Shown: in pieces, positions 1,636 to 26,172 of the stretch
How the letters are laid out: the number at the start of each line of letters is the position of its first letter
How positions within the stretch are numbered: the first letter of the stretch is position 1
Assembly: GCA_002803225.1 (NCBI GenBank)
Contig: NXFV01000336.1
Span: forward strand, 1 to 29,399
DNA from: Gamarada debralockiae
Taxonomy: Eukaryota > Ascomycota > Leotiomycetes > Helotiales > Hyphodiscaceae
Length of the DNA stretch: 29,399 bases
Direction of reading: 5' to 3'
Program-made: the position numbers and the translations under genes
The notes under the pieces: generated by a model
The model's database searches: none
What the model saw: the letters and a program-made list of their open reading frames with translations, nothing else
What the model was told of the DNA's origin: nothing

Positions 1636-3247
1636 CTATGTTCTAGGAGTCAAAGCAACATGAACCCCATTACCTGAGCTCAACGTGAGATGCAAGCCCT
1701 CCAGCCAGTCTCTTGGATCGCGACTCTCAATCTTTTCAAACTCCTGAACCAACCTCACAATTGTATATCCAGCTTCAGTAAGAGCAAACTGCTGGCCAAC
1801 GCAAATTCGCGGCCCGCCGTTGAAAGGGAGATATTCCCAGCCAACACGCAGCGACTCCCAACGCTCCGGTCTGTATTCCTCTGCATCATCACCGTAGAGA
1901 TCCTTCCGACGATGCATTGCAAATACCGAATAGGAGACCATGCTACCCTTTGGAATGAAAACGGGAGATCTGCCATCGAGACCACCTCCTGTAGGAAGCA
2001 CGGTGTTTTTATTGGCGATGCGATAGTTCGACGGTACTGATGGATAGAGACGGAGAGCTATTATCACGCTTTAGCATGGAAGTTGTGTCTGCGGATAAGA
2101 AATTAACTCGATGGGCTTACACTCATTTAGAACATATTTCAGATACCTCATATTTCGCAATGTTTCATAATCTGGCTTTCTTCCCTCCAATTGATCGACC
2201 TCGAAGGTGAGTTTGGCCCACACGTCTGGACGGCGAGCGAGAACATAGAAAGTATTGCTCAAAAGTCCAGCAGTAGTATCTCTACCAGCAAGCAAGACAT
2301 TTAACATCTCAGAGCGAATCCGAATAGGGTCATCAGTAGCCTGCGCGAGCTCGTTCGCGAAAATATACTTTCCTTTCTCACTTTTATCACTTGACTTTTG
2401 TCCACGGTTTCTTATTGCCCTTTGGGCAAATTTATCGATATACTCATGCACCGTTTTGCAATCTTTATCGAATGATTTATTCCGCCTGAGCCACACAAAA
2501 GGACCCAATCTCAGCCGACTCAGCAACTCGTTTTGAGCAGCGTCAAATGCTAGACCGAAAAGCTGTTGCTGGGAACCAACTGGGCTTGTAAGGCTGTTGA
2601 TAGATTCTCCAAGAAGGAATTCCGTTGCGCTATCGAGAGTGAGTTGAAAAAGCAGCGATTGCAAATCCACCGATGATCCGTCTTTTGGAATTTTTTCGAT
2701 GAGCTGCTGAATGTGTGACTCGAAAGTGTCCAGGTTAGCGACTTGACTCTTAGTGAAGCTGGGGCGAACCATGGCCTGGAGAGGTTAGAAAAGCATTTTG
2801 CGTAACAGGGAGAGCTTTTACACGCGAATGTTCCCAGTCCACACCATCAGAAGTAAAGATGCCTCGGCCTAGCAAGGCTCCCATAGCATCTATCCTGCCA
2901 CCCAGGCCATAGTCTTTAAATTTCGACGACAGTATCGCTTTGATATTTTCGGGTTCGATGGTTTGGTGCAGCGTGAGACCCATCGCAACAACACTGTACG
3001 TATTTCCGAACTCCTCAAATTTTTTGTAGTGACTTTGGAGGTAGACTTTTGCTTCGGCATGAGCCTTTTCCTCTTTAAAATTTGCAAGACCAAGGATGCG
3101 TTCGGATTGAGTATGCTTTGGCGCTGGTTTGCACCCATTCGCATGGGAGTATCGGTAATTCTCGATCGAAGAGATTATTTTTGCGAGGATAAAGTAGAGA
3201 GCAAAGCTAGCACCAGAGATGAGTGCATAAATCGTTAGCGACGCCAT
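1636..3247 (-). CDS. CYP52-like cytochrome P450 (n-alkane/fatty-acid omega-hydroxylase type)
   Basis: Predicted exons are 3247-2822, 2775-2121 and 2057-1636, with introns of 46 and 63 bp. They give 500 residues, close to the usual length of CYP52 enzymes. An N-terminal hydrophobic segment (about residues 4-27) would anchor it in the ER membrane. Visible P450 landmarks are the I-helix motif AGRDTT (305-310), ExxR as ESLR (360-363, built across the second intron), PERW, and the haem loop [14 protein letters not shown] with the Cys ligand at about 446. The sequence around [23 protein letters not shown] and the long haem loop are typical of the fungal CYP52 clade. Members hydroxylate the terminal carbon of alkanes or fatty acids; the substrate here is inferred. 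The gene is divergent from the thioesterase relic at 3795. Both splice joins keep the frame and conserved residues, so the gene looks intact. Confidence 0.9.
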
Positions 3248-3794
3248 TCTTCTGTAGAGTACGTCGAGTTCAGATTAAAGATGATTAGAAGAGAGCAGAC
3301 GATTGGAACGTTCACATGTACATGTACAGTACATACAGTCGGTGCAACTTCTGGCCGACGGAATGTGGCGAGAACATTGGTACCAGAACCCGGCTTGCTC
3401 AGAAGTTGGGAGGGCACTTCGTACGGAAGTACTGTAGTAAAACTGGCATAGTTCAACTGAACTCAATATGATCTGCTCATACGTTGATACCGATGCCTCC
3501 TACGAGTACTCTTCGACTGGGCACTAATGCAAGATGGTGTGCAGTTCACGGACGTTTTGCTGTGAGGTTTGCCCGCGCCCGTGCCTGGTTGGCCCAAACG
3601 GGAGCGAAACCTCCCCCCGCATTTTGTAACGCCGTGAAGACGCCCGGAACTTAGTGGATGCTCCGCCATGACATGGCGTTCGGTGCTCGGTGCTGGACTG
3701 CTCTGAGTTCCCTCCAGAAATTCAAGTTCGCTTTGATCGGTGTACTTCTATCTCTCTCTAAGAGCCAGACCTTCCAGCTGGGACAAAGGAGTAG
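3248..3794. promoter_or_regulatory. Divergent intergenic region between P450 and thioesterase relic
   Basis: This 547-bp gap lies between the P450 start (minus) and the decayed thioesterase (plus), so it should hold both promoters. An ATG at 3658 opens a short plus-strand frame that ends just before the thioesterase frame and is not in phase with it. It could be a lost first exon or leader, which I cannot decide. A repeated ACATGTACATGTAC-type motif lies near 3313-3330. No gene is supported. Confidence 0.4.
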
Positions 3795-4492
3795 TTGATT
3801 CTCGAGAGGTCAACAAGAGCCATTGCCACCACTGCCGCTGAACACTGGGCCAAATTCACTGCAGCTTATCCCGTGCCTCAGAGATCAATCAGCCATTTCT
3901 CTGCAACGCCAGAGACGCCCAGATACATCGACAACCTGGAATTTACACTCATCCCAACTTACAGCCGTACACCCCAACCAAACGGCGAAGACCACTTCCA
4001 TAGCGCAACACTCAGCAACCCCAAGACAATCCCGCACTTCCTCACTCTCCAACGTCCTGGATCTCAATCCTTCCACAGGGCCCGTTCCTCGTCTCCTCAG
4101 ATAGTACCGGGCAGTTTACCAACAGCAGCGGCTTTACAGAAACCCGATTGTGTTTGCCTAGTTCAGCTCGGGCACGAGGGACTGAACGGTCACCCTTCCA
4201 TAGCTCATGGTGGGATCGTCTGTGCCCTTCTTGACGAGTCCATGGGGTTCGCCATGATGCTTCATCGAACGAGTGTCGCTGCGTCGGAGCCGTTGATTCT
4301 TGTTATACGGCAAATATGACTATTAACTTCAAAAAGCCGGTTATTGCTCCAGACGCAGTTGTAGTGAAGTGTTGGTTAGTGAGACAAGAAGGGAGGAAGT
4401 GTTTTCTAAGATCGCAGATTGTGAATAAGCAAGAAACAGTATTGGCGGAAGCGAGTGGTCTCTGGATTGTGAAGTCTATTAGTAGACTTTAG
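3795..4492 (+). pseudogene. Decayed PaaI/4HBT-family acyl-CoA thioesterase-like gene
   Basis: The stretch encodes recognisable hotdog-fold thioesterase segments in more than one frame. One frame (from 3795) carries TYSRTPQPNGEDHFHSATL and then LNGHPSIAHGGIVCALLDES, matching the family core (LNGHPxxxHGG...LLDE). It hits a stop at 4317-4319. The expected next segment, TANMTINFKKPV, continues in another frame from about 4300 to the TAG at 4490-4492 without a plausible intron between them. Around 4078-4160 a third frame (SDSTGQFTNSSGFTETRLCL) fits the family better than the main frame, suggesting a compensating pair of indels. No in-frame ATG precedes the conserved region. I therefore call it a frameshifted relic; sequencing indels are the main alternative. 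Intact relatives hydrolyse acyl-CoA thioesters. Confidence 0.65.
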
Positions 4493-5207
4493 AACAGGGT
4501 CTCTGTTCTGTGGGTAGAAACCGGTAGAGATGCCATGCATTGATGAGCGGCCAGTTCATTATTTCATAGAGCTGGGTTAGTGAGGCGTACGACAAGTCTC
4601 CAATTCGGACAACTTCGAGCCTGTCCTTAGACTAGAGCAATTGACAATCCCTTCACCACAATGCTCCATAATATCAGGGAGCCTTGTAGTTTGTAAACAT
4701 ATGTATAGGGATGTATTGGATCGAGTCACGCAGGTGCGTTCCAAGCGACGTAAAATATCAAGCCTCATTATGTCAACGTGGTTGATGAACTCCAATACGA
4801 GGGTCATCTTACTATGAGTTCAATAGTCATGTTTCTGATTTTAGATCTCGTGACAGAGGCGAAGTTATTCCAACTTTGACAGGAGTATTTTGCGTTTGGA
4901 TGGAACCGAGCAATCGCAGCTAAACGGGTCCACAACATACCATACCCGCACAACTTCCACAACTGACCCTTCAACCTAGGTCCGCCTATCTACGGAGCTC
5001 GGAGAGTCTGCTATTGAAGCACAGTCATCGATCTCCGGGCCACCACAGCCCAGTCGGATCCACTTTGGCACATCATGCAGGACCCCAACAAAGGCGACCA
5101 AGATCGGTCACGTATCCTACCATGCAACATAAATATATTCGATCAGTCCACATTTCTTCCGCATCCTAGTCCAGTTCCCCCGCACAGCCTGTTTTGTAGT
5201 TATAATA
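4493..5207. other. Intergenic region upstream of MFS gene
   Basis: No gene is supported. The right end should contain the promoter of the MFS transporter. An AT-rich TATA-like stretch lies at about 5127-5140, some 70-80 bp before its first ATG, followed by a C/T-rich leader. Confidence 0.4.
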
Positions 5208-7126
5208 ATGATGAAGAACACAATGGTTTTCGCTTCTGATCACTCCGAAACGAATCACGCCGCAGCAAACTCGCACTCCCAACATCAAGACCAGCCTGCT
5301 GTTATCAGCTCTGTACCGATGCTAGATAGCTATTTACACCCTTCGCAAATGTGGTCTGGAAATATTTGTAAGCCACACTTCATCTAGAACATTTTATGGT
5401 TTGGCCCTAGGAGGTTAACGCTCCTTCAATGAAGATATCGATCTCTCGGAAATCACCAACACCACCGACTCAGAACGCCAAACCAACACTTCTAGTTCTC
5501 TACCAACAAGCAATGGATCTCCATTGTCACCAACTGATGGTGCGTCGCACATGCAAATCATAAAATGGGAACAGGGGGACTCAGAAAATCCTTACAATTG
5601 GTCGCTGGTCTGCACACCTGACATTATCCACGATACCTCCTGTATTTCCCTAGGAGAGTGTCTCTCTCAAAAAAAGTCACTAATTTCGGTCGCCTAGAAA
5701 CGTAAACTCATCATCACTATGATCGGAATCTCCGTTACCATCAATAGCACGATTGGTTCTTCTCTCCCTAGCAACGCGATTCCTTACATCGCCGAGACTT
5801 TCAATATTACGGATGGTAGTGTGAAAGTACTTCCTATGTCTATTTATCTCGTGGGATACATCTTTGGGCCCCTTGTGTTCGCCCCGCTGAGTGAGGCGTA
5901 TGGACGTCGTTCGGTCACAATTGGCGCATTCTCTTTGTTTGGTATATCTACAATGGGAGTAGCGCTGGCCCCAAACTGGGCACTTCTTCTTATTTTCCGT
6001 CTCCTAGCTGGGATAGGTGCATCTGCGCCAGTTTCTGTCGTAGGTGGCATATATGCAGACATCTATGAGTCTCCCATTGCGAGAGGTCGGTCCGTAGCGG
6101 TATTCTTCACGGTTTGCACCCTTCTAAATCCTTGAAAGGCAATAAAAGTCTAACGGATTACAGACGATTGGATTCGGTCCCTTGATTTCTCCTATGATTT
6201 CAGGTTGTGCGTCACCTACGCTAGGTTGGCGATGGAGCTTCTGGATCGCCCTTATAATAGCAGGTATAAGCGCCACAGGGCTGATCTTCCTCCCAGAAAC
6301 ATATGGTCCCAAACTCCTCACCGATCGCGCAAAACGTCTTCGCAGTGAGGGCACCAACACCCTTATCTTCGGGCCCCTTGAGACAGAAAGCCACGGCTGG
6401 CGTGACCTCCTTGAACCTAAAACTCTACTACCGCTACGGATGCTCTTCGCCGAACCCATCGTCACAGCCGTATGTCTCTATCTCGCCATCCTATATGGGA
6501 TCTTTTATATGTATTTCGGCGCTTATTCAATAATTTTCGAGGGCATCTACGGCATGACCCCATGCACCTCAGGCGCTATGTTCTTCCCTCTCGGTGTCGG
6601 TGAATTAGGCGCAGTTGCATTGGGCGCCATATACGACTCCTTCCTCGTCCGAGCTCGGGCGAGCAACGACCCTTGGAGCCGGAGTGAAGAATCTTTTCGA
6701 CTCCCATTAGCCTGCCTAGGAGGGCCTGTCGCCTCAATTTCAATTTTCTGGCTCGGTTGGGCAGCGCGAAAAGACATCCACTGGGCGGTCCCCTTCGCCT
6801 CTGGCTTCATTAATGGCCTAGGCACACAGTTGATTTTCATTGGACTGCTCAATTACCTAGCGGATGCGTACACGGTATACGCGGCGAGTGCATTTGCAGC
6901 TTCAAGTTGTAGTAGGAGTGTTTTTGGGGCGTTGTTACCTTTGGTTGTTACGAAGATGTATGATTCATTAGATGTAGCGTGGGCGACGTCCACACTTGGG
7001 TTTGCAAATCTGTTTATGACGGTTGTGCCGTTCGCGCTGCTTAGATATGGACCATTTTTGAGAAAGAGAAGCAAGTTATGTATGCACTTGAAGGAGAAGA
7101 GAGAGCAGGGAAGTGCAGGACTTTAA
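5208..7126 (+). CDS. MFS transporter, DHA1-like multidrug:H+ antiporter type
   Basis: Predicted exons are 5208-5367, 5435-5607, 5698-6111 and 6164-7126 (introns 67, 90 and 52 bp), giving 569 residues with all phases consistent. The hydrophilic N-terminus is followed at about residues 96-110 by IKWEQGDSENPYNWS, the entry motif of fungal 12-TM DHA1 proteins just before TM1. A motif-A-like PLSEAYGRR follows TM2. TM4-TM5 carries RLLAGIGASAPVSVVGGIYA and FGPLISPMISG (motif C region), then LGWRWSFW before TM6. Six further hydrophobic segments run to the C-terminal RYGPFLRKRS. The third intron is short and begins GTTTGC, but its removal gives exactly the spacing expected between TM5 residues. Such proteins export drugs or metabolites across the plasma membrane; the cargo is unknown. 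The start (two adjacent ATGs) and the first intron are the least certain parts. Confidence 0.87.
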
Positions 7127-8086
7127 GGAATGGATTTAGGGTTGACAACAATCAGGGTTCAGGGTGTTGTCCAAGTCTCTTTATTGGTATTTTGGTTGAA
7201 ATAAGCTGTAGAGCAGTAGGAACAACTTAAAATTTATCCTGGTGGAAGTGATTGGAGCCACCTCTACATGAGGAGGGCTCCATTTTCAGTGAAAATGGCG
7301 TCCATATTCGGCAAGCGCAATGGTTGCCGGCGGTCCGCGTCGTGGGCGTCGGGTTAGGAGTTCAATTACAATCAAGTGTTTTCTAAAGGCATCCTGAAGA
7401 GTCTACCTACATCGCCAATAAACGGGCTTTATATTGAAGGTCACCTTGGTGGTATTCCGAAGCACTGCTTTTCTATCTAGATAACAAGTACCCTTCATAC
7501 AAATCCTTAGCTCCTATGGATATTTCTTAGAGTTCACCTACAGCTGCCTTTGTCCAATACTAGTATGTCATTGTTAGCCTGTAGTGGCCTAGCTACGCTC
7601 TAACGGAAATAAACAGTTGCTTCTCCAGATATAGCCTACTTGTCCAAATAAGAGCATAGCCCTACTTGACATGGAACCCCACAGAGGCCTCAAGAAGAGC
7701 ATGATGGTATTCGCACTAAGACTAGAGAAAACTAAGCTAAAGAGAGAAGAAGAAGAAAGAGAACTCTGCGAGAAGCTCGAGCTTATGTAGAGGTCTCTGC
7801 TAAGCTATGTTAGGCAAGCAAGACAAGGTCAGGTTTACCCCCACGGCAGGGGAAAACATTAGAGAGGGCCAGGGTCGTCACAGTTACAAGTTGGGCTTAA
7901 ATTAGATATATGAAAAAAAGCTAAGGAGTTCAATATTTCCTATAGTAGACTTTCCTCTTAATTAGCCGTGTAAGTAAACGTACCGTACACGTAAGAGGGA
8001 AATTAAATATTGATTTGACACTAGTTACAGATACGGTTGTAATATTACGGCCTAAAAAATCCCCTGCCACAATATAAAAGATCTCC
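7127..8086. other. Gene-poor tail-to-tail gap
   Basis: This 960-bp stretch separates the 3' ends of the MFS gene and the secreted-protein gene. No gene is supported. A purine-rich patch at about 7720-7790 could encode an acidic/basic low-complexity peptide but lacks a start and any flanking domain. A G+C-rich patch with GCGTC repeats lies at about 7315-7355. Confidence 0.45.
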
Positions 8087-9901
8087 TCATGGATCAACAC
8101 ATGGCCAGAAATCCGGGGTGCCAACTTCCTGATCACCGATGTTAACGATAGTGTTGAAAATATTAGTGCAAATCGACAAATTAAAGAATCCAGGCGTTTG
8201 GATACCATTTTGGAAGATCAAGTCACCTTCTGTTCCTAGACCGTCGATATATTTGGAGAGTGCTGGCATCTGGTAGCCGTTTTTGTTGCCATTCAGCTGA
8301 TAACCCATGTATGAGCTGTTGACAATATCCTCGAGCGTTACGCCGCCGAATCGATTTCCGTCAAGGTCGTTATGAGTGCCACCAGGTAGTGCTGTGAATG
8401 GCTTACCGCCTGACCAATCTCCGACGCTTCCAGGGGTCCACATAGCATTAGCCTTAGAGTTGGCATTCAGGACGTAAAATGTCATCCCATCGATGCAAAC
8501 GGCAGTCTGGCTGGCTGTGTCACTATCCATCCAATCCGAGATATCACCCTGAAGAGTCGAAGAGCACGCGTCACCAGTCTTCCTATATAGGAATTGACCA
8601 TTAGCGTTTCGAAGCCATGACACACATAGGGTTTTCGAAATTACTTACAAGATAAACGGATTAACATTCCCTGGAGCAAGGGCCCAGGCGACTGGTATCA
8701 TTTGGCCGTACATAATCTTCTGGGCATTCGCGGTCATGATGGACAAGTCAATGTCGGTTGGTATTGTAGTCATCATACCGTTTTGCATTAAAGACCAGAG
8801 ATCGCTGATTACAGATTCGTTAGATCCCGAGAAAATCTGTTCAAGATAGCTTGATTCAGTGCCCTCCCAAGAGCTAAAGAGCGAGCCCAAAGCGTCAGAC
8901 ATTGTGTTTTGCAGGCCTAGAGCGGCTTGTGCGCTAGCATAGATATCAGTAATACTCAAACCCGGCTACCAGCTTTGAAGACTCACGAAGGAAGATTATC
9001 TTTTGAAATAGTAATTGAATAGGATATTGCGGCATTGAAGGCATCCTTGTAAAAGCCACGAAAATTGTCATCAGCGAAGATTTTAGCCACCTTTATGACT
9101 AGGTTATATTAGATTGAAAGCTTGCCAAGTGGGGAGTACTATACGGACCAACATTCCATGCATAAGCGGATCCAATTCCGACAACTATTGCCAGAGTATC
9201 GAGGACATCTTTAATAATTGTGGAATGATGATTCGGTGGTAGCTGAGGAGCAAACGTGCTGGTAAAAATTCCTAAGTTACTTTGCATCTGCACGGCAGCC
9301 CCTTGGATAGCCTGGTAGTAGTGTTGATGGATCTGTAACGGAATTAGCGATGACTGAACTGCATTACCCTGAACTATATCTGAGCTTACCTGATGAATTG
9401 ACGAAAAAGAGTTTAGGATCAAGAAACTTTGAACCTTGTTAGCCTGGAATTGAGTCATCGTAAGATATACAAAACTGACCCAGCCGGATGACCAGTATCC
9501 GTACACTGAACTGTGCCTGAGCAGGGTATATCGCCCACGTCCAGGCAGTTCCACCCTTCAGGGCCATTGAAAAAATTGCTGACGAATTCAGGAAAAGCAA
9601 GCGAAACACTTCCTGAAGCCAGCGGAGCTTGCCATGCAGCAATTGTAGCATTCCAAGCATCATTGACATCGGCAGCAGCCCAACGAGCCTCAGGTGCAGC
9701 TGCCGCATTGGTGATTGGGGTCTCAGAACATTGTACGCTCAGCCAAGGCGCAGATGGGTTCGAAGATGTAGATGAGTTCGAAGGTGTAGATGTGTTCGAA
9801 GATGTAGATGAGTTCAAAGACGCAGTTGAGTTGTGTATAGCCGCTGGAATGGCGTGAACCAGTGGCAGAAAAATAAGCGCCAATTTTATTAAAAGATGCA
9901 T
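8087..9901 (-). CDS. Secreted Ser/Thr/Asn-rich protein, 6 exons, function unknown
   Basis: Predicted exons are 9901-9471, 9426-9390, 9332-9149, 9098-8987, 8933-8649 and 8582-8087 (introns 44-66 bp), giving 514 residues; the frame holds through all five joins. The first intron has a GCTAAC branch site close to its acceptor. I chose the ATG at 9901 over 9919 because it puts the hydrophobic signal-peptide core (LLIKLALIFLPLVHAIPA) at the very start. A Ser/Asn/Thr-rich linker with many NxS/T sites follows, encoded by an 18-bp tandem repeat. The body has Cys pairs around GPEGWNCLDVGDIPCSGTVQC and ends with TPGFFNLSICTN and PDFWPC. It reminds me of the non-catalytic region found in fungal killer-toxin-like GH18 chitinases and of standalone relatives, but this is from memory and unproven. 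No catalytic motif is visible. Confidence 0.75.
9759..9830. repeat. 18-bp tandem repeat, four copies, in coding sequence
   Basis: Four 18-bp units (9759-9776, 9777-9794, 9795-9812, 9813-9830) are built on TTCGAAGATGTAGATGAG. The first and third are identical and the fourth is the most diverged. On the minus strand each unit encodes six residues of the Ser/Thr/Asn/Pro linker after the signal peptide. Being in frame, copy-number change would lengthen or shorten the linker without a frameshift. Confidence 0.9.
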
Positions 9902-12788: not shown

Positions 12789-15239
12789 AATGAGGTTCAC
12801 CCTGAAGGAGTGAGCAAAACGGGATAAAGGAACGTTACTCACCAGGGATTACCACCATATTCTGAGAAGCTGGATATCTGTGCAAATTCAACAGCTCTTG
12901 CCATACAAAAACCCGGCCGAAGTCCATGGGAATTACAAACTCGGGTTTCGGGATTATCCGAGGAATATGACAGCACGTCTTAGAATCAGAGAGATCTTTC
13001 CCCGCATGAAAAAATATCTTCATGCAGATGCCAATAGCTCAGATTTTGATGCGAATAGTGTCCACCGCATACTGGAGTGCAAGCAAAATGAACAGAGCGA
13101 AGCTACCGACTCCCTTCCACAACGGTTGGCCACATCCTGCTCATTTTCCAGTCGCGATCACAATAACAGAGATCGTGTTGTTATCCCAAGATGCGGTGCA
13201 AGGTCATGGAGCGGTCATTAGATAGCACAATATATCGCGGCTCTCGTCGAGAACATCTGATGTAGCGTATGAGAGAGGAAATTCAACAGGCCACCGAGTC
13301 TGTTATTTCGAATGGGGCATCAGCCGACTACCACCGCAGATGATACTGGACTTGGGCTTGAATAAAGTGCATCTTCGAGAACTTCGCCTTGGGGATTTTG
13401 CAACGACTTCGAGACGTTTTTCCTAGCTCGCCGTGCGGTGATCAGAAAACACCCTATGCTCGAGCGGCGCATTTCGCTTGGGAGTTGAATTCAAAGCCAT
13501 TTCGCCGGAGAGAATAAAACATCGGGAGCTATTTTCCTTGTATTGTATCATGATACCGTGGGCTCTGGTCTAGGGTTCTTTGGCATGATCGTTAAAGAAA
13601 TGTAAGATGCAGAGAGCGAGGTAAATCCAACAATAGCTCTAAAGCTGTTGCAATAGATGCAATAGACTACCTCGTCAATAGAATTGATTTCCCATTGCCC
13701 TGGTTCTTGCCTTTCTGTCATACAGCGACCACTTGGTTGCAACAACCAAAAGAACAGGTGACCGGCCGTCAGCTGAAAGTATTTCGCAGCGTTATATATG
13801 AACGAGTGCAGCGCAATTTGGCTGGAAAACTCGATACTAAGAGGCTTCTCCAACTCTACAGTACGGGTGGCCAGCGATTTAACATCATAAAGATACAGAT
13901 TTCAACACAATTGTGTCTATCCCTCCGTAAGTCCAACTCCTATTCGAGCGCGGGTCGCAACGTCCATTCTTTGGCAGCACTTCTGCCTCGTCTCTGTTGC
14001 CCCCGAAAATGTATTATTTCCGAATTCAAACCATTTCGCATATGTATCTTTGGTTCGGACTGTGCATCGGCTTCAGATCGGAGGGACGTGGATCGGGTGA
14101 TATTGGTTTGAGGTGGGATGGGTACGATCTCCGTAGGAGGTGGTTTGGTGCTGTATCCGTGGCCCATGCCTTGGAACGGAGTCCATCTCTTGTTTCCAAA
14201 GCTCCAACACTCTACTGCTCAAGTCGTAGTCTTGCGGAAGCTGCTTGATCGCGGATTTGGCGTGCGCGTGGAGAGCCTTAGGCAATGTTTCCTATCATCA
14301 TTGGCCCATTGCCCATTGAGCTAGTACTAGATACATCGCTGAGGTGCTGCTTGGCTACTGGCGGGATTTAAGGTCGTGGAGTGATAATGTCCGGGTTGCA
14401 TGATTGCTGTGATGTGAGGTGTTGCCGTGAAAATTTCCGCGCGTGACCAGCAGCTCAACCTCTGGTGCACCACCAGCCCTTCCGCGATCGCAATATCAAT
14501 GCCAGATCTCCCAAAGCCATGCGCCTACATTGCGGAGTGTTTTCTCCGAAGTGCTCTGTTCCACGTTCGCTAGTTGCGAGCCAATGAAGTGGACGTCAGG
14601 ATGTCGGAATTTTCGATGCCGTCCCCCAAAATCTGCTGGTGAACAGCTGAGTGGATGAACCCCATACAGAGATCGTCGGCGATAGCGAATTGAAGGCCTC
14701 AGAATTAAGACCCTCGTTCGGCAATTAGTAATGCCTAATTACACATGCCGGCATATGAGTCAGTTTGGAATCAGCATTCTTCTTGAAACTTCCAGATCCT
14801 CACGGCCCTGTTGATCAATTCTGGCAACTCTCCGAGAATTCCGGCCTCAAAAACTGAAGCCTTTCAGGACTTTCCACGATTCCAACAAACATGGTTGGAA
14901 TCTGATCACAACACCATTCGTGGGCCGTCTGTTCCGACCTATGGGAGGCAAGAGTTGTAAAGATGCGTTGGATCGTGGATATCATTGCCTGCGAGGCTTC
15001 ATCACATGCACCAACATTCTGTTCTTGCTTCCTCACTCGTCACCTACATTGTCTGATTACGACATGGACAAATGAGAACGTCTGGCTCTTGCAGACTTTG
15101 TCCAAATCGTCCATTCCAGTAAGCCAGAGAATTAGGATTGCATATCAGCTCATGGGAAAGTATTCCGAGTAATAATGTCATTTTTCGTCAGGCCGATTGC
15201 GCCATGATCATGATCTGATATCATAGGTGAGGCTGTCTA
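12789..15239. other. Long gene-poor stretch
   Basis: About 2.4 kb without a gene I can defend. Several frames of 60-138 codons overlap one another on both strands (12835-13225, 13548-14324, 14443-15172), mostly without ATG starts or domain-like sequence. One minus-strand segment (about 13940-14285) is listed separately as a possible relic. Confidence 0.4.
13940..14285 (-). pseudogene. Possible frameshifted coding relic
   Basis: On the minus strand, a helical-looking frame (LSSRVLELWKQEMDSVPRHG at about 14223-14165) is followed by a Pro/Ser-rich frame from about 14167 to 13940 in a different phase. The two overlap where one stops making sense. Neither has a good start, and a stop lies just upstream of the first. 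The pair could be a broken gene or two unrelated chance frames; no family is recognised. Confidence 0.2.
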
Positions 15240-15347
15240 GATACAAGATATAAGCTCCCTTCCGCCCTCCTACCTCCTACTGAAACACAAGTCATTCCAC
15301 CTCCATCCTCATTCGCCGTTACATCAGAATACCATCCACAAATCAAA
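15240..15347 (+). promoter_or_regulatory. Core promoter/leader of opsin-related gene
   Basis: A TATA-like GATATAAG occurs at about 15247-15255. It is followed by a pyrimidine-rich tract (CTCCCTTCCGCCCTCCTACC) and a C/A-rich leader ending in a favourable CAAAATGG start context. CT-rich leaders of this kind are common in well-expressed ascomycete genes; strong or inducible expression is inferred. Confidence 0.5.
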
Positions 15348-16316
15348 ATGGGTCTCCTCGAACGTAGCAATGATGCCCTCAAGGTCAACCCACCCACTGG
15401 GGATGACTATCATCTCTCCTTGGCTGGGTCTGATTGGCTCTGGACTGTGACTGCCATCTACTGTTTTTCGCTCCTCATCGTCGTTGGCCTCACGTTCTTT
15501 GCTCCTAAGGGCGAGAAGATCTTCCACTATCTCTTCACCATCTCGCTGTTCGTCGGCTCAGTGACTTATTTCGCTATGGCTTCCGATCTTGGATCGACCC
15601 CTGTCTCCACTGTTGATAATTCTGCTGGAACTAGACAAATCTTTTACGCCAGATATATCAATTGGTATGTCCCAGTGCCAAAAAAAAAAGGAGAATGACA
15701 TTAACAGATATAGGTTTTGTGGCTGGCCAGAAGTCATCATTGCCGTCGGATTGATATCTGGCGTCTCGTGGTCCACCATCGTTTTCAACATTGGGCTTTC
15801 ATGGATCTGGGTTGCTTCGTGGCTCTCGGGTGCGTTGGTCAGTACTACTTACAAGTGGGGGTTCTTTGTTTTTGGCACAGCCGCATACTTCCTGCTCGCT
15901 GCCAGTGTTCTTATATTTGGAACTGTCACCGCCAGGCGCGTGAGCATTAGCAGGCACTACCTTACCCTTGGTGGCTGGCTCGTCTTCCTTTGGATGCTGT
16001 ACCCGATCGCATGGGGTGTTGATGACGGTGGAAACGTGATAAAAGTGACTAGTGGGTTTATATTTTTCGGCATTCTTGACGTCTTAATGGTGCCCGGTCT
16101 CGCTTTCGGATTCTTAGCCCTATCGACCAAATGGGATTTCCGGTAAGTTTCTTTAGGGCAACTTCTTGATTTTGCATGTGCTAATGAAAACTCAGCGAAC
16201 TCAACATTTACTTCACCCAGTATGGCCGTGTCGCCCAAGCGGGAGCGTTCCCAGAACGCGAGAAGGCCGCTCCAGCTGAGGCCGCTCCAGTTGTGGAGCC
16301 TCAGCAAACCGTTTAA
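15348..16316 (+). CDS. Opsin-related 7-TM protein without retinal lysine (Hsp30/YRO2/ORP type)
   Basis: Exons 15348-15664, 15714-16142 and 16196-16316 (introns 49 and 53 bp) give 288 residues with seven hydrophobic segments, the length of fungal microbial-type rhodopsins. RYINWFCGWPE (102-112) is helix C, and GILDVLMVP (225-233) is helix G. Compared with bacteriorhodopsin, the Schiff-base lysine (K216) is Val232, the proton acceptor D85 is Asn105 and the donor D96 is Ala116, while D212 is kept as Asp228. It should therefore not bind retinal covalently or pump protons. This is the pattern of opsin-related proteins such as Hsp30/YRO2, stress-induced plasma-membrane proteins. The C-terminal tail is hydrophilic and Ala/Pro/Glu-rich. 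Both introns have consensus GTATGT/GTAAGT donors. The gene appears intact. Confidence 0.92.
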
Positions 16317-20128: not shown

Positions 20129-21078
20129 TCAAATAGCGCTTATCCCCGCTATTTTCCTTGCATTATTCCTAAAACACATTATCCGACAAGGGGTAAACTC
20201 TTCCAAGCTAGTTTTGTAAGGTGCTATTGCCCCCTTGTTCATTAAACTCCAAATGAAACATCCCCCAACAACGAAATGTTTGACAGATTCCTCGATGCTG
20301 TTGATGCTAATTGCCTCATCGATATCGAGTTCCTCAATTTCAGCACGAGTCTCTCTTCGCACCAAAAAGGGAATTCTACAGCCAGGAAACAAACAAACTC
20401 TTGTCTCCTTTTCTGGCGCCTGGATTTGTGCCACAAGCCCGTCGGACATTCTCGTCTTCTGTCCTCCGTCGCACCCAATATTGCAAGTCTAGTCCGGATT
20501 CAAGCTTCAGCTGGTGACCATGCCACTGAATAGTCTCTCCGTGACGGAAAAATCTTCTACCATTTCGAGAGTCCTAAAGAGCATCAAAGTCTCCGGCACC
20601 TTCTTCTGGACAGCGTTAATGGTGTCAATCCGTTGGCCAGATAATGTGAGGGTGAGGCCATGTATGTTGAATGATACAACGGGCGAATAGTTGCAAGTTC
20701 CGGCATCGTATATGCTGTAGCCTAGACGAGAGTGGCGCTTAATTCCATCTTCTCGCCAATCCACCACCCAAGACGGCAGTACCGGATCGGCTGCTGGGTT
20801 GGAGTTGCCGAGACCGGCAAGGCATAGAATCTCTAGCGATCTTGTACCACCAATAATGAACCATGGAAGGTACGTGTACAGTTCTGTTGGAACGTGGCAT
20901 CTGAGTCATAACCCCTTGGCCCTGTTGCCTAGGATATGAGTCACTACGCTGTATATATAGCCCTTGGATCACTACTCTAAATGTCAAGCTGCTTTCACAT
21001 TCTACGATTATGACCTCGCAACAAGTTCCGTGGCCCTTAAACCATAATCAGGGTGCAACATGAACGAATCAAGATGTG
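20129..21078 (-). pseudogene. HET-domain gene relic, C-terminal half
   Basis: This is the 3' part of a broken heterokaryon-incompatibility-type gene whose 5' part lies at 25399-26172. On the minus strand from 21078 a frame begins with FMLHPDYGLRATELVARS, then stops. At about 20780-20640 come LPSWVVDWREDG and SFNIHGLTLTLSGQRIDTI, typical of the region after the HET domain. At about 20400-20210 comes CLFPGCRIPFLVRRE followed by KHFVVGGCFIWSLMNKGAI, the usual C-terminal module. These pieces lie in different frames separated by stops and indels, so no full product can be made. It ends about 40 bp from the convergent SDR gene. Confidence 0.8.
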
Positions 21079-21126
21079 TAACGTCTATCCCTGCGTCCCG
21101 AGACGCACCCTGTCACGAGACGAATC
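21079..21126. repeat. Left terminal inverted repeat, 48 bp
   Basis: It starts TAACGTCTATCCCTGCGTCC and pairs with the reverse complement of 25351-25398, with four differences. It contains an inner palindrome (GCGTC CCGA GACGC) and an outer one (CGTCT...AGACG), so the tip can fold on itself. Confidence 0.88.
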
Positions 21127-21330
21127 CAAAGTTTTGGAATCACAAATTTTTTCTTAGTAAGTCTACGAAGTTATTATTAATATATCACTTTCTTTAACTA
21201 TTTCTCCCTAACGAGGCCACTTTACAATAAGGAAAAGACTATTGTTGATAATACTATTGATCGTTTCAATCACGCCACTGATCGTCGCTTTGGCTGTTCC
21301 CCCCTGTTTAATCACAACTATTAAAGTCTG

Positions 21331-21393
21331 TTCAAAATTCGGAGTACTTAGGGAAAGGTCCTATAACGAAAGAATATAGCTCCGAATTTTGAA
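21331..21393. repeat. Perfect 14-bp inverted repeat inside the element
   Basis: TTCAAAATTCGGAG (21331-21344) and its exact complement (21380-21393) are separated by 35 bp. With two mismatches the arms extend to about 20 bp. It may be a relic of a small fold-back insertion in the left sub-terminal region, which would also explain why that region does not align with its right-hand counterpart. Confidence 0.75.
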
Positions 21394-21654
21394 GACACTC
21401 AAAGAGGAAAATAATAAAGTCCGGGAGTTACTCCGGTGTGAGGAGAGGGGCATAAACGCCACATATTTTAGCTTCAGGATTTAGTCCTTATTAGCGTCCA
21501 TTGACATACATCAGCCCCCATCAAAATTATACTGTATAATTAAAGCCTCAGGCGCCAGGAGTCAGCTGTGGCTGAGGTTGGGAAGAATTCTTTCCTAAGG
21601 CTGTCAGGCACAATTGGTCCGACATCACATTCTCTGCGCCATGGAAGGACCTCG

Positions 21655-21779
21655 GCCCCGTAGCCTTGCAATCCAACTCAACCTTACCCATGCCTCTGGT
21701 CACTAACTCAACTCCAGAGAATTCGCCACCTCACAAGGCTATGGCTAGTGCAGGTCGGCTGCCCTCCCTGCTAGTACGG
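21655..21779. repeat. Left inner inverted repeat (about 125 bp)
   Basis: It aligns with the reverse complement of 24681-24807. A perfectly shared core around 21718-21750 includes AGAGAATTCGCCACCTCACA. Most differences are transitions, compatible with RIP-type mutation or age. Confidence 0.85.
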
Positions 21780-22136
21780 GCGACATGCCGGAAAGTCTGG
21801 AATAAATCAGTTCACAGAAAGCGGTGGAGCAAAAATAAAGTAGGGATAGCTTTGCCACTTTATATCTAGACGTGCCTTGAGTAAACACTTTATTTCTTAA
21901 GAGTTGGCTAACATTTCATTAGTAAGATTCCTAACGAACCTTCTCCAGAAACAATTACGATCTTACACCGCTGTCATGTGCCGCAGGCCCACAGCGAATG
22001 GGCACCAGGCAATGGTAAAGCTGCTCGCGACGGACGCGTCGATCCGAACTCCAAACACCGTAACCTAGTCAGCCAAGGGATTAGTGGGTTTTAACACTTT
22101 GTAAAAGTGTTCAGTTACGGTCTCTGAGCATTAAAA

Positions 22137-23933
22137 TTAGTAAATTTCTAGATCCAACCATTCCGTTTCCGCAACCATTCGCATTGCGTCTCCCCACATA
22201 ATTCCCTGAACAAACGAGTCTCCAACAAGAACAAACCCTCCCTCGGCTCTGGTACGCAAAATGACGGGGATAGTGAAACCTTCCAAAATACAGATCTTGT
22301 CCCCCTTCCGGCTGCGCGAATGGGACCATCCAACATATCCGTTCTTCGTAGTCATAAAACGCATACCATCTTTCAGTGCCTGTTCAAGGTCTTCAACCAT
22401 AGGTCTCCAATCGCCTTTATTAGGGACATAACCCCCCCCGGAAGACCCTGCCCAGTAATTCTTAAATTCCAACTCAAAATTATCCTTGTGCTCTGTCGCC
22501 AGGGTTTTTAATTCCCGGCCATGAACTAAGAATGATCCCACTTCAAGAATCCAAGCAGTTGTTTGTGTTCCAATAATACCTCGCAGATTTTCGAGTATTT
22601 CCGCATTCCAAAACATAGCGATTCGAAGCGGATAATAGTAGGGATCTGCTCCAAGGGCTTCACCGTACTCATAATATCGAGTCAAAGTGTGTGCTATAGC
22701 CCCCCAAAGACATTCTAAATCATCGTAGGTGTTAGCTTCAGATGTAGGTTGCCATTCTTTTGAGAACTGGAAATCCTCCCCGACTTCGGTCAATGTAGGA
22801 CAGACTCCGTCAATTTCGTCAAAAAAGAAGCCTCGAAGCCGAAGAACATCTGAATCCATTGACACAGATGCCTGGGTCCTGCCTGACGCACGATACCAAG
22901 AATCAGCACCGCTGGGTTGATTATCCCAAAATCTCGGCGTTGCTGTGGGTATACCATGAACAAGATAATTAATGCCTCTTGCGAAACCCTCATCGAGCCC
23001 AAACCAGTTAGGTGTCCAACTTGGAAGCCCGGACGTGTTGTCGCATCCTGAACCTAAAAGGGCAACTATATCCGGAGAGGAACTTGTTGATATAGCAGAG
23101 AGAGCTATGCTAATAGATATGTCTTTAATAGATTGTGTATAGTTCGGAACCGGGATGTAAAGGCCGCCGTCATACACAAGCCCTAGTAAGGCAAAGACTT
23201 TGTCTCGTGGATCTGTGGCTAACGAGTTACAACTGCGCCTTAATGCTTCGAGGAACCGCACGGGCTTGATACTAGCTGCGTCGAGGTGGAATTGGACCAA
23301 ATTCTGGAGGTTGGTGAGCGCAGGAGTCAAACTCGTATCCTTCAACCCATCTGGTGGTTTTATGGCGGCCAGGTCTTTCCAACCGATATCTCGTTGACCG
23401 CAATGAACTACGGTGTGTCGAGCAAGAGCGAGTTCTTGTATGATCCACACTCTTCTCCAGTATGGCCGGCCAAGGAACCTCGCAAGCGCGGCAACTCTCT
23501 CAGCGTTTTTGAAATCGAAATTTCTGTTAGATATACTCTCCAAAACCTGATCAGAATCGTGGCCCTCCTCGCCGATCCAGGCTTCCACCTCATTCGCTCG
23601 GCGATAAATAGACCCCATCCACAAAAGTTGCTGACTCTTCTCAACCTTATCTTGTTGATTAATACAAATTATATCAACCCAAAGACGGCTGAACCCTTTC
23701 GCTCGGAGATGCCGCAACCCTACTTCCAGATTCGTCGTTACTTGCACCGAGGTCTCATTGATTAGGATATCCGTGGTGATTGTTGGATCTCCCCAACAAT
23801 ATGACAGGGCGCAGTATGAGGGTGGGTTGATGAGGGATGCATGTGAGAGAGAACAATGGACTTTGGTTTCGCCAGGGAGAAGTGTTAGGAGTCGGATCTC
23901 GTTGCGGTCGTTGTTGAGAGGTTTGTATTCCAT
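22137..23933 (-). CDS. HET-domain (heterokaryon incompatibility) protein, intact
   Basis: A single uninterrupted frame of 598 residues. The HET domain (PF06985 type) lies near the N-terminus: YCALSYCWGD (40-49), LWVDIICINQQD (84-95), MGSIYRRANEVEAWIGEE (106-123) and GRPYWRRVWIIQELALA (155-171). The C-terminal part carries the usual family ending, GDKICILEGFTIPVILR then GFVLVGDSFVQGIMWGDAM. HET proteins trigger a programmed cell-death response on fusion of genetically different hyphae or in other allorecognition settings; partner and trigger here are unknown. No NLR partner gene lies in the window. The gene is intronless and lies alone inside the TIR-bounded element. It is fully open although the neighbouring HET relic is full of stops, which suggests it is younger or under selection. 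Confidence 0.93.
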   Translation of the reverse strand: MEYKPLNNDRNEIRLLTLLPGETKVHCSLSHASLINPPSYCALSYCWGDPTITTDILINETSVQVTTNLEVGLRHLRAKGFSRLWVDIICINQQDKVEKSQQLLWMGSIYRRANEVEAWIGEEGHDSDQVLESISNRNFDFKNAERVAALARFLGRPYWRRVWIIQELALARHTVVHCGQRDIGWKDLAAIKPPDGLKDTSLTPALTNLQNLVQFHLDAASIKPVRFLEALRRSCNSLATDPRDKVFALLGLVYDGGLYIPVPNYTQSIKDISISIALSAISTSSSPDIVALLGSGCDNTSGLPSWTPNWFGLDEGFARGINYLVHGIPTATPRFWDNQPSGADSWYRASGRTQASVSMDSDVLRLRGFFFDEIDGVCPTLTEVGEDFQFSKEWQPTSEANTYDDLECLWGAIAHTLTRYYEYGEALGADPYYYPLRIAMFWNAEILENLRGIIGTQTTAWILEVGSFLVHGRELKTLATEHKDNFELEFKNYWAGSSGGGYVPNKGDWRPMVEDLEQALKDGMRFMTTKNGYVGWSHSRSRKGDKICILEGFTIPVILRTRAEGGFVLVGDSFVQGIMWGDAMRMVAETEWLDLEIY

Positions 23934-24091
23934 CTCATCTGAGAGATGGGTATCGGTGACAAGGGCAGGTTTCCGGAGAGGAATAATGGGAAATCATGAG
24001 ATCGTATATCAAGGCTAGTGTAGCTATTAGACAACAAGAACTGGTAGGCCAGCGGATATGTGTGACGGGTTCGAAGGAGTTCATGGAAGTC

Positions 24092-24346
24092 CTAAAGGAA
24101 TCGTTGAATTCTATCAAAGACTAAGCTAAATACTCCTTGCTGGATATAAGACGTCCGGATGAAGAAGAGAAGAGAGGGATTCCGTTGACAAGCACTAGCG
24201 GGTGGTATGGTCCGTGCGTTAACACGTGGCGAGTGTTTTACCGAAACACCAAATCTGTGATAGGCTAGTCCCGTTACAATATGGTCGTAGATGAGCTCAC
24301 GCAGTGCGCTGGAAAAATCCTGCCCGCTTGTATTTGCTAGCCACAA
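24092..24346 (-). other. Possible F-box/2EXR-like N-terminal fragment inside the element
   Basis: A minus-strand frame contains ALRELIYDHIVTGLAYHRFG, similar in character to the helix that opens many fungal F-box-like/2EXR proteins (LPxELRxxIYxxI). It is short, has no intact remainder and overlaps the upstream region of the HET gene. It may be captured gene debris or chance. Confidence 0.25.
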
Positions 24347-24680
24347 AGTGGGAAAGCGGTGGCTCAGCAGAGAACAGCGTCGCAGCAGTTGTGGCTTTCA
24401 GTCGATTCCGAGCATATCTGTTAGGATAGGACCGTGGTTCTGGTGAGTATTTCTTACTTGATGTGCTAAGTAATATCGGAGCATCGCAGGAAACAGCTAT
24501 TTCCGTGAAACAAAGTTGAAGACGGTGGAAGAAATGGCTAGGCCGAGGGCAGAGGTTCCGAGCTGAATGTGCGCTGAAAGCCTGCAAGCCCAGCACAGCC
24601 ACTGTGCTAGGTCGTAGACAAGTCTCTTAAATAGGCATAAAGGCAGCACTTCGCCTCTTCTCGTTCAATATGTATCTTGC

Positions 24681-24807
24681 CCCTCCTAGCAGGGGAGGGC
24701 GGCCGACCCGCACTAGCCATAGCCTTGTGAGGTGGCGAATTCTCTAGAGTTGAGTTGGCGACCAAAGGCATGGCCCAAGGTTGAGTTGAATTGCAAGGCT
24801 GCGGGGC
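24681..24807. repeat. Right inner inverted repeat (about 125 bp)
   Basis: It is the inverted counterpart of 21655-21779, at a similar distance from the right end of the element as that copy is from the left end. The 540-bp stretches between the inner repeats and the terminal repeats do not align with each other. Confidence 0.85.
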
Positions 24808-25350
24808 GCCAAGATTCTACACAGCCACAGGCCATCAACGATCACGTGCTGCTATCGGGACGTACGGGGCTAGTGATCGTTTCGGTTGGAGGTACCGATA
24901 GGTGTGGCCACAGGCATTATTACACAAAAAATATAATAAATTTTACCGAGATTACCATAACCACGACGTAGCTAACCAGGATTCTTGCTCACTTGATTGG
25001 AGGAGGTATTAGCCCATGTGGCGACGTCGTATGACATGGCGCGCCCCGGCCGCCACAGGACTGATAATAGCTTTTTAGTATTATAATAAAACCCTGATAT
25101 TCATATCTCATCGTTCTATAAGTTTAAAAGGTGAAAAAGCTAGATAGTTGTGTCGCGAGTCGAGGGGTCCTAACATAGTGTAAAAAGAGGTTCTCTATAA
25201 ATTCAAGGGGGCGGCGACGATACGATAATAAATTTCGGAATTAATAGGTTAGGTGTGTTCAGGGGAGATATATAATACAACTGAAACGAAAATAAATAGA
25301 AATTTTAATGCGTTCATAGATTTAAAGTCGCTTGAAGTCGAAGTACCTAC

Positions 25351-25398
25351 GATTTGTCTCGTTACGGGGTGCGTCTCGGGACGCAGGGACAGACGTTA
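25351..25398. repeat. Right terminal inverted repeat, 48 bp
   Basis: It is the inverted counterpart of 21079-21126 (44/48). It ends AGACGTTA at 25398; the next base outward is already HET-relic sequence. Confidence 0.88.
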
Positions 25399-26172
25399 GT
25401 TGACACCAAGCCAAAGACTGCAAGCATTATCGAGAGGATTAATGCATCGGTAACGTCTTGTATTCTGCAGAAGTTGCAGCAGACTAATCTTCGCAATATC
25501 TCTCTTCTCTCGATCATAAAACCATTGCGGCCAATATCGACGTAAGACGTTCATATGCCCAGCTTGAGATATCAGTGTCTTCAGAGAGCTGCTCTAAGCT
25601 TTGTTGTCGTCCAGCCGCGTCGCCCTCGGTAACAACTTTCGTGAAGGCTTCAGGATTACTAAACACTTCTGGTGATGGTGAAAGATCTTTTACCAGGGTG
25701 ACAGCTTCTATTTCCTCGGCCTCGTCGTTTGGCTCCTTCCAGTACTCGGGTGCCTAACTACACAAACACCTCTTCAGCCTGCGAGTAAATATCTCGCATA
25801 AGAACGATCTGAAAAGATTTCTCTCTGAGATCCCTTTAATTGATGCAAATACTGTGAATCCACAAACAGACCAGGTCATTTTCGAGTCGCAGGCGTTAAA
25901 GTACTGCATAGCAATTAATAGTAACTTGGTACTTTCTGCCATCAACCGAGGTAGAACGCGTTTCATTCGGATCTCCCCCATACGTACGAAACTGCTTTGT
26001 AAACAGGATTCTCATCTATGTAGACACGGTGGAGAGTACACCTAATCTTTGATGTTCGATCGGAAGACGGTGCTAGATTAAGAAGACGGATCTGGCAGCG
26101 GGTTAAACTAATCTGTTTTAATAGCTCTGTGGCATTAGACCATCTTCCATAATCAAAGGCATGTGCTCGCAC
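25399..26172 (-). pseudogene. HET-domain gene relic, N-terminal half
   Basis: On the minus strand, CQIRLLNLAP and YKAVSYVWG (to about 25975) open a HET domain. The frame then slips and continues as GDPNETRSTSVDGRKYQVTI. Further on, ENDLVCLWIHSICIN is followed by TAA (25838-25836) where family members have Gln, and IVLMRDIYSQAEEVFV by TAG (25760-25758) where Trp is expected. Both changes are single transitions. Beyond this, long open pieces in other frames run to a TRRYRCINPLDNACSLWLG-like stretch at about 25465-25405, resembling the DPRDKVYALLGL motif. The relic ends exactly at the element boundary at 25398 and resumes at 21078. There is no good ATG; the frame at 26172 starts with GTG. Confidence 0.82.

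What the first reader, a model, noticed from the sequence alone, without database searches (positions are those of the whole stretch)
20129..26172. HET gene nested inside another HET gene: the element splits a HET pseudogene exactly at a TA
Minus-strand relic sequence runs from 26172 to 25399 and resumes at 21078 down to about 20129. Joining 25399 to 21078 through a single TA leaves a frame open across the junction (about 50 codons before it and about 20 after), reading through VFGLVSTTHLDSFMLHPDY, which fits the usual order of HET motifs. Head-proximal motifs lie only on the right side and tail motifs only on the left. This is strong internal evidence for one insertion event and fixes the target as a HET gene. 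Homing of HET-bearing elements into HET genes would be notable, or it could be coincidence.
Basis: partly seen in the sequence, partly recalled or inferred. Interest (0 to 1): 0.9.

Follow-up and report, generated by a model that had tools for sequence, protein, structure and literature searches.

The report
Small jumping elements carrying HET genes
A 4.3-kb DNA element holding an unbroken fungal self/non-self recognition (HET) gene sits inside the broken remains of a different HET gene, and six of its 14 complete sibling elements in the same genome hold other HET genes, so this family of small transposons likely moves fungal immune-type genes around.

Summary
The minus-strand stretches 26172-25399 and 21078-20129 are two halves of one HET gene, split at a TA by a 4,320-bp inverted-repeat element (21079-25398). 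Of 140 HET proteins tested, 67 match both halves, all 67 in the right order. With the element left out, spacing across the junction is off by a median of 0.7 residue. Homing is not supported: cargo and target HET are under 40% identical where they match, the target is a TA, and one HET hit is unsurprising in so HET-rich a genome (P about 0.08-0.5).
The larger finding is the family. The genome has at least 15 elements with both ends: conserved ends, mostly TA|ACGT borders, different interiors. Seven of the 15 hold a different open HET-domain gene (P about 2e-6 if the genome has 534 HET genes, the count of a relative), though neighbouring DNA is also HET-rich. Transposase remains (DDE_1/HTH_Tnp_Tc5) in some copies make a non-autonomous Fot1-like Tc1/mariner element likely. 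The ends look RIP-mutated in 12 of 14 elements, the cargo frames in none. How genes were captured, and present mobility, are not shown.

The parts
25399..26172 (-). 5' half of the split HET pseudogene (HET N-terminal residues, then about 110 codons up to the insertion)
   Evidence: tblastn with cargo HET and with HET proteins of other loci, E down to 7e-19; 129 of 140 HET proteins match this flank at E<=0.1
20129..21078 (-). 3' half of the same HET pseudogene (PDY motif just after the junction, middle part 20887-20510, weak tail matches near 20470-20189)
   Evidence: C836 HET frame matches both halves in order; 70 of 140 proteins match this flank, 67 of 67 with both flanks collinear; genome search hit C836 at 5.7e-11
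21079..21080 (.). left copy of the TA target
   Evidence: one TA restores the HET frame in the joined flanks
25397..25398 (.). right copy of the TA target
   Evidence: as above
21079..25398 (.). whole inserted element, 4,320 bp
   Evidence: terminal inverted repeats; sibling copies in the genome with the same ends
21079..21126 (+). left terminal inverted repeat, TA then ACGTCTATCC...
25351..25398 (-). right terminal inverted repeat
21079..21449 (+). conserved left end of the family (about 370 bp), RIP-like dinucleotide content
   Evidence: 65-87% identity to 14 other copies; RIP indices
24940..25398 (+). conserved right end of the family (about 460 bp), RIP-like dinucleotide content
   Evidence: 64-88% identity to 14 other copies; RIP indices
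22140..23933 (-). cargo gene: HET-domain protein, 598 codons without a stop
   Evidence: PF06985 101 bits, cut-off 22.5; best full-length relatives 41-58% identical, in Helotiales and in unnamed contigs
21655..21768 (+). left arm of an inner inverted repeat around the cargo gene, about 0.57 kb inside the end
   Evidence: two stretches, 21655-21685 and 21688-21768
24693..24807 (-). right arm of the inner inverted repeat, about 0.59 kb inside the end

Best explanation
The window holds a 4,320-bp inverted-repeat element (21079-25398) with an unbroken HET gene as cargo, lying at a TA inside one broken HET gene; it is likely a non-autonomous Fot1-like Tc1/mariner transposon that was moved by a transposase supplied from elsewhere. 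Shown: the two flanks are halves of one HET gene in order and at the right spacing, the element has paired ends, and 6 of the 14 other complete elements found in the genome carry other HET-domain genes between the same kind of ends. Inferred: the whole unit, cargo included, entered by one transposition; a DDE_1/HTH_Tnp_Tc5 transposase, now seen only as remains inside some siblings, moved it; host genes were acquired repeatedly between the ends. Also inferred: HET and NLR-like genes are kept more often than other cargo, because a single-copy gene between repeated ends escapes repeat-induced mutation and because such genes may be selected as self/non-self recognition genes. That this copy landed in a HET gene is most simply chance in a genome with at least 150 HET domains.
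For: Collinear halves: 67 of 67; median spacing error 0.7 residue, n=69; single C836 frame across the junction. Family: 37 matches to the terminal repeat with up to 3 mismatches and 0 to its reversed control; left and right ends listed, both lists capped. Complete elements with both terminal repeats: 14 clean plus the inner one on C149 = 15. Within an element the two repeats agree better than between elements (3.8 against 5.9 mismatches in 40; 0 of 10,000 permutations; 15 rows, the compound C149 read as one). Cargo: open HET frames in 7 of 15 (window, C512, C80, C669, C874, C350, C1064). Chance of 7 of 15 if HET domains are spread evenly: 4e-10, 2e-6 or 2e-5 for 150, 534 or 770 of them. Diverse cargo: 9 cargo HETs need 7 changes on a tree of 34 and never form one group in 200 bootstrap trees; for three cargo HETs the first nine contigs of relatives have no recognised family ends (against 5, 26, 30). 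Transposase: HTH_Tnp_Tc5 + DDE_1 frame inside the C821 copy; relatives start 715 bp (C149) and 710 bp (C834) inside the left end. Borders TA|ACGT in 13 of 15 left ends and ACGT|TA in 14 of 15 right ends, as reported for fungal Tc1-mariner elements with HTH_Tnp_Tc5/DDE transposases (PMC4188875, passages). Second nested unit: on C149 a 4,774-bp element lies within a transposase-like stretch. RIP-like indices: ends 12 of 14, longest cargo frames 0 of 14, non-coding stretches outside 7 of 26.
Against: No second near-identical copy of any of the three cargo HETs searched was found, so movement with cargo rests on the inserted position of this copy. No intact transposase was seen between two matching ends. 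The empty site is inferred from homologues; no strain without the insertion was available. HET genes may simply lie near these repeats: in the fetched DNA of 14 clean elements, HET or NACHT stretches were 8 inside and 2 outside (P=0.054; open HET genes only, 7 against 0, P=0.008), and HET genes lie roughly 1-2 kb outside the right ends of the one-ended copies on C248 and C366. Eight of the 15 complete elements hold no open HET gene: C703 (hydrolase, flavin reductase), C597 (cupin), C462 (PigL_N/AIG1-like), C149 (SDR, WD40), C834 (transposase remains), C490 (708-aa frame without a family, HET tail fragment), C964 and C786 (no family). The two repeats of the inner C149 element differ at 15 of 40 positions. 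The inner inverted repeat might mean that the HET gene came in by a second, nested event.
Confidence: 0.78

Rival explanations
1. Ordinary bystander capture: a Tc1/mariner-type family picks up any neighbouring DNA, and HET genes are frequent only because the genome is full of them and they lie in repeat-rich regions; there is no bias for recognition genes.
For: At least 150 HET domains (scoring stopped at 150 of 770 candidates); other cargo exists; HET genes also lie just outside the ends on C248 and C366; the flank control is only borderline when fragments count (P=0.054).
Against: 7 of 15 is far above a uniform expectation even with 770 HET domains (P=2e-5); open HET genes 7 inside against 0 in an equal length of flank (P=0.008); HET fragments inside C490 and the one-ended C1062 and C262, and HET-NACHT frames in the truncated C41.
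Confidence: 0.32
2. Homing: HET-bearing elements insert preferentially into HET genes.
For: One clear case, this window.
Against: A TA target; cargo and relic under 40% identical where they match; no HET match at the borders of the 13 other clean elements at E<=1e-4, a test of limited power; one hit by chance has P about 0.08-0.5; the one other insertion read in detail is in a transposase-like stretch.
Confidence: 0.05
3. The HET gene entered a resident, empty element later (second-step capture at the inner inverted repeat), so the HET-bearing unit itself never moved.
For: An inner inverted repeat surrounds the cargo gene symmetrically, 570-590 bp inside both ends; C129 has a similar two-layer layout by coordinates.
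Against: The same inner stretch lies 479 and 493 bp inside the left ends of C129 and C553, against 639 bp here, so it looks like part of a subfamily rather than a mark of a later event here.
Confidence: 0.15
4. The two relic halves are fragments of different HET genes brought together by chance, or an assembly join.
For: HET genes are abundant, and the relic is decayed.
Against: Correct order in 67 of 67 proteins, right spacing, frame restored by one TA, one homologous frame across the junction.
Confidence: 0.03

Closest known systems
Fungal Fot1-like Tc1/mariner elements (Mariner families of Sclerotinia sclerotiorum, PMC4188875; passages seen; the label Fot1-like is recalled)
   Same: TA target, ACGT at the ends, inverted repeats, HTH_Tnp_Tc5 + DDE transposase among the relatives
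   Different: The table rows I saw there are 1.4-2.3 kb; these are 3.2-7.2 kb, most complete copies show no transposase, and many carry host-type genes between long conserved ends
Pack-TYPE elements of plants (Pack-MULE, Pack-CACTA; PMC8903248, passages seen)
   Same: Works like one: non-autonomous inverted-repeat elements with host coding DNA inside
   Different: Not filed as a member: a fungus and a Tc1/mariner-like family; cargo frames are long and open, 7 of 15 from one protein family, and no near-identical donor gene was found for the three cargo HETs searched
hAT element that captured histone H3 in Pseudocercospora fijiensis (PMC6710886, abstract seen)
   Same: A fungal DNA transposon carrying a host gene, under RIP
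   Different: There one gene was amplified to hundreds of RIP-inactivated copies; here each copy read has its own cargo, and the cargo frames show no RIP-like bias while the ends do
Starships, giant fungal elements with HET and NACHT cargo (PMC9594970, passages seen)
   Same: Mobile elements that carry HET and NLR-type genes
   Different: Starships have a DUF3435 tyrosine recombinase captain and are very large; this element is 4.3 kb, has inverted repeats and no captain
Tn7-like transposons with defence cargo (PMC8649781, search listing and start of abstract only)
   Same: In outline: a transposon family with varied defence-type cargo
   Different: Bacterial, a different transposition system (recalled), unrelated

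Membership tests
Tc1/mariner (Fot1-like), non-autonomous member | TA target site | tested here: met
   TA at both borders of 15 of 15 rows (the C149 row pairs an outer left with an inner right end); one TA restores the interrupted HET frame
Tc1/mariner (Fot1-like), non-autonomous member | Terminal inverted repeats starting ACGT | tested here: met
   48-nt repeats; ACGT in 13 of 15 left and 14 of 15 right ends; ACGT rule from PMC4188875 (passages)
Tc1/mariner (Fot1-like), non-autonomous member | Related HTH_Tnp_Tc5/DDE_1 transposase between the same ends in some copies | tested here: inconclusive
   Remains 710-715 bp inside left ends of C149 and C834, and inside C821; none complete between two matching ends
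Tc1/mariner (Fot1-like), non-autonomous member | Transposition in trans by that transposase | not testable with these tools
   Needs an excision assay
Pack-TYPE element | No transposase, host coding sequence inside inverted repeats, several family members | tested here: met
Pack-TYPE element | Donor gene still recognisable elsewhere | tested here: not met
   Best relatives in the genome: 64% over part (C417, broken) and 48% (C730) for the window cargo; 40% for the C512 cargo; 34% for the C350 cargo; other cargo not searched
Starship | DUF3435 tyrosine recombinase captain | tested here: not met
   All six frames of 100 aa or more inside the element were scanned with Pfam: HET in one, nothing in the other five
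HET-domain protein family | PF06985 above the curated cut-off | tested here: met
   101.2 bits against 22.5
HET-domain protein family | Triggers cell death or incompatibility | not testable with these tools
   Needs expression in a fungus
Homing element | Insertion into the homologous gene or a long recognition site | tested here: not met
   TA target; target under 40% identical to cargo; no HET match at the borders of the 13 other clean elements, limited power

The most novel reading that the evidence does not exclude
A family of small cut-and-paste transposons is a standing vehicle for fungal recognition genes: conserved, RIP-hit ends with an exchangeable single-copy slot that is repeatedly filled with a different HET or HET-NLR gene, and which helped to build the large HET repertoire of this fungus and perhaps of Helotiales at large.
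Probability: 0.4. Interest if true: 0.88.

Novelty: new variant of a known kind. Interest (0 to 1): 0.74.

Why it matters
Why some fungi hold hundreds of HET genes (534 gene models in Phialocephala subalpina, PMC5148876, passage) is, to my knowledge, an open question. A small transposon family that carries such genes in 7 of its 15 complete copies would give a concrete way to move, scatter and exchange them without the single-copy cargo being mutated as a repeat. It is testable by strain comparison. It may also have been overlooked: for the P. subalpina repeat library, sequences matching HET-domain proteins were excluded as not belonging to transposable elements (PMC5148876, passage).

Tried and rejected
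Homing: rejected as unsupported. One ancestral HET gene handed down with the element: disfavoured, 7 changes on the tree (shuffled mean 7.9, 140 of 500 shuffles as low) and 0% of 200 bootstrap trees with one origin, though starred branches alone force only 2 changes and several branches are long; the two HET-NACHT cargos (C669, C41) do group together. RNA genes: none at Rfam's cut-offs. Composite of two unlinked ends: disfavoured by repeat concordance. C149 was first read as one element of 5,605 bp and then split into an outer part with transposase remains and an inner 4,774-bp element; it was left out of the counts of 14. C848 (HET, both ends recognised, last 52 bp of the right end missing) is left out of the 15; with it the count is 8 of 16. 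One-ended or truncated copies (among them C41, C143, C627, C129, C262, C593, C707, C821, C972, C978, C1062) were not counted. Contents of C129, C802, C144 and C363 could not be read. Two papers searched for a link between HET genes and transposons gave nothing: PMC12881547 (0 occurrences of transpos/Starship) and PMC12153272 (heterokaryon incompatibility only in its reference list).
Full report
What was checked. The window is contig C122 of an assembly of 54.3 Mb in 1,112 contigs. The nearest named relatives of its HET gene are from Helotiales (Mollisiaceae, Phialocephala subalpina, Hyaloscypha finlandica), so the host is probably a helotialean fungus; the species is not known. The element at 21079-25398 has 48-nt terminal inverted repeats and a second, inner inverted repeat around one open HET gene of 598 codons. 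Its five other frames of 100 aa or more match no Pfam family.

The split HET gene. The right flank matches the start and the left flank the later part of HET proteins. A HET gene on contig C836 has one frame that matches both flanks in order, residues 1-37 on the right and 57-171 on the left. Of 140 HET proteins tested (120 listed of 373 hits, and 20 from loci of this genome), 129 match the right flank, 70 the left and 67 both at E<=0.1; in 67 of 67 the order is right. After leaving the element out and keeping one TA, the coordinates of protein and relic stay in step: median shift 0.7 residue, quartiles -18 and +7, range -84 to +198, n=69 of 141. The frame with one TA carries a PDY motif like that of HET proteins; without the TA it stops after three codons. 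Less tidy: a frameshift near 25975, stops on both sides, and about 49 residues more than C836 after the junction, which could be an intron or an indel.

The family. A search with the left end gave 40 matches (40 of 56 candidates scored), one with the right end 42 (40 of 48 candidates scored), and the terminal repeat with up to 3 mismatches 37 matches against 0 for the reversed control. Fourteen copies have both terminal repeats in a clean arrangement, 3.2-7.2 kb long; the inner element on C149 makes 15. The ends are 64-88% identical to those of the window copy, but the interiors differ. Open HET-domain frames lie in seven: the window, C512 (533 aa), C80 (765), C874 (623), C350 (636), C1064 (998) and C669 (HET-NACHT frame of 806 aa followed by a WD40 frame of 780 aa). 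C848, with the last 52 bp of its right end missing, has another (685), and the truncated C41 a HET frame and a NACHT frame. HET fragments lie inside C490 and inside the one-ended copies C1062 and C262. The eight complete elements without an open HET gene hold hydrolase and flavin reductase frames (C703), a cupin (C597), PigL_N and AIG1-like frames (C462), SDR and WD40 frames (C149), transposase remains and frames without a family (C834), a 708-aa frame without a family (C490), or only frames without a family (C964, C786).

More than chance? The genome search scored 150 of 770 HET candidates and all 150 passed the cut-off; the window's own HET gene is not among them, so 150 is a floor. P. subalpina has 534 HET gene models (PMC5148876, passage). 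With 150, 534 or 770 HET domains spread evenly, 7 of 15 has P = 4e-10, 2e-6 or 2e-5, and 8 of 16 with C848 is smaller still. The local control is weaker: in the fetched DNA of the 14 clean elements (67.0 kb inside, 67.5 kb outside) there are 8 HET or NACHT stretches inside and 2 outside (P=0.054); for open HET genes 7 against 0 (P=0.008). HET genes also lie roughly 1-2 kb outside the right ends of the one-ended copies C248 and C366. So some of the excess may come from HET-rich surroundings.

Independent cargo. On a tree of 34 proteins the nine cargo HETs need 7 changes, about as many as shuffled labels (mean 7.9), and no bootstrap tree joins them; long branches limit this, and starred branches alone force 2. 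For the window, C512 and C350 cargo, the first nine contigs of relatives in the genome have no recognised family ends (against 5, 26, 30, all capped lists). The best relatives of the window cargo are 64% (part of a broken gene, C417) and 48% (C730) identical, so no donor gene is in sight. It works like a Pack-TYPE element, but I do not file it as one.

Mechanism. The borders read TA|ACGT in 13 of 15 left and ACGT|TA in 14 of 15 right ends; fungal Tc1-mariner elements with HTH_Tnp_Tc5/DDE transposases have TA duplications and ACGT ends (PMC4188875, passages). Such a transposase frame lies inside the C821 copy, and relatives of it begin 715 bp inside the left end of C149 and 710 bp inside that of C834. 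Three ends (C821, C802, C1099) have DDE_1 within 3.5 kb in the same direction, where 0.1-0.2 would be expected under the assumptions (40 ends). On C149 another family member lies within the transposase-like stretch. So movement by a Fot1-like transposase in trans is likely; no complete transposase between two ends was read. The repeats of one element agree better than those of different elements (0 of 10,000 permutations), which argues for real units, although the inner C149 repeats differ at 15 of 40 positions.

RIP. The ends have RIP-like dinucleotide content in 12 of 14 elements, the longest cargo frames in 0 of 14; non-coding stretches outside elements in 7 of 26, and non-coding stretches inside but away from the ends in 9 of 16. 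Coding and non-coding DNA differ anyway, so the fair comparison is ends against non-coding flank (Fisher P=0.0007). It fits repeated ends being mutated while single-copy cargo is spared, but the 9 of 16 inside shows that the bias is not confined to the ends.

Homing. Not supported: cargo and target are 37-39% identical where they match, the target is a TA, and one insertion into a HET gene among 14-24 has a chance of about 0.08-0.5.

Novelty. Ten searches of the paper library were made. They turned up Starships with HET and NACHT cargo (PMC9594970, passages), gene capture by a fungal hAT element (PMC6710886, abstract) and Pack-TYPE elements of plants (PMC8903248, passages), but in the listings no small Tc1/mariner family enriched for HET genes. 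The library holds no preprints and lacks most subscription papers. I rate it a new variant of a known kind: gene-carrying non-autonomous elements.

Noticed in passing
window 21655-21768 and 24693-24807: Inner inverted repeat around the cargo HET gene, symmetric to the ends; relatives on C129 (two arms), C553, C935, C262, C552 and C231. C129 seems to have the same two-layer layout; its content could not be read.
   Followed up: partly
L033 (C149) 2187-6960: A 4,774-bp family member lies inside a transposase-like stretch of a related element: a second nested insertion of a whole unit.
   Followed up: yes
L041 (C848) 696-1070: The right end of one family member, cut at position 370 of 459, abuts the left end of another: a further nested pair.
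   Followed up: no
L037 (C669) 1942-6740: HET-NACHT frame followed by a WD40 frame (14 matched repeats), an architecture like Podospora het-d/het-e type NLRs (likeness recalled), carried inside one of these elements.
   Followed up: partly
L035 (C462) 6120-8422: PigL_N and AIG1-like GTPase frames as cargo; another AIG1-like frame lies about 1.5 kb inside the left end of the one-ended C627 copy: possibly another class of recognition-type genes.
   Followed up: no
G000:C350:34304-44734: Two right ends facing outwards about 10 kb apart with no left end listed between them (capped lists).
   Followed up: no
window 15231-16143: Microbial-rhodopsin-like gene in two overlapping frames on the + strand (PF01036; the first frame is just under the cut-off).
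   Followed up: no
PMC5148876 methods: The repeat library of Phialocephala subalpina was cleaned by excluding HET-domain matches, which could hide elements of this kind (passage).
   Followed up: no
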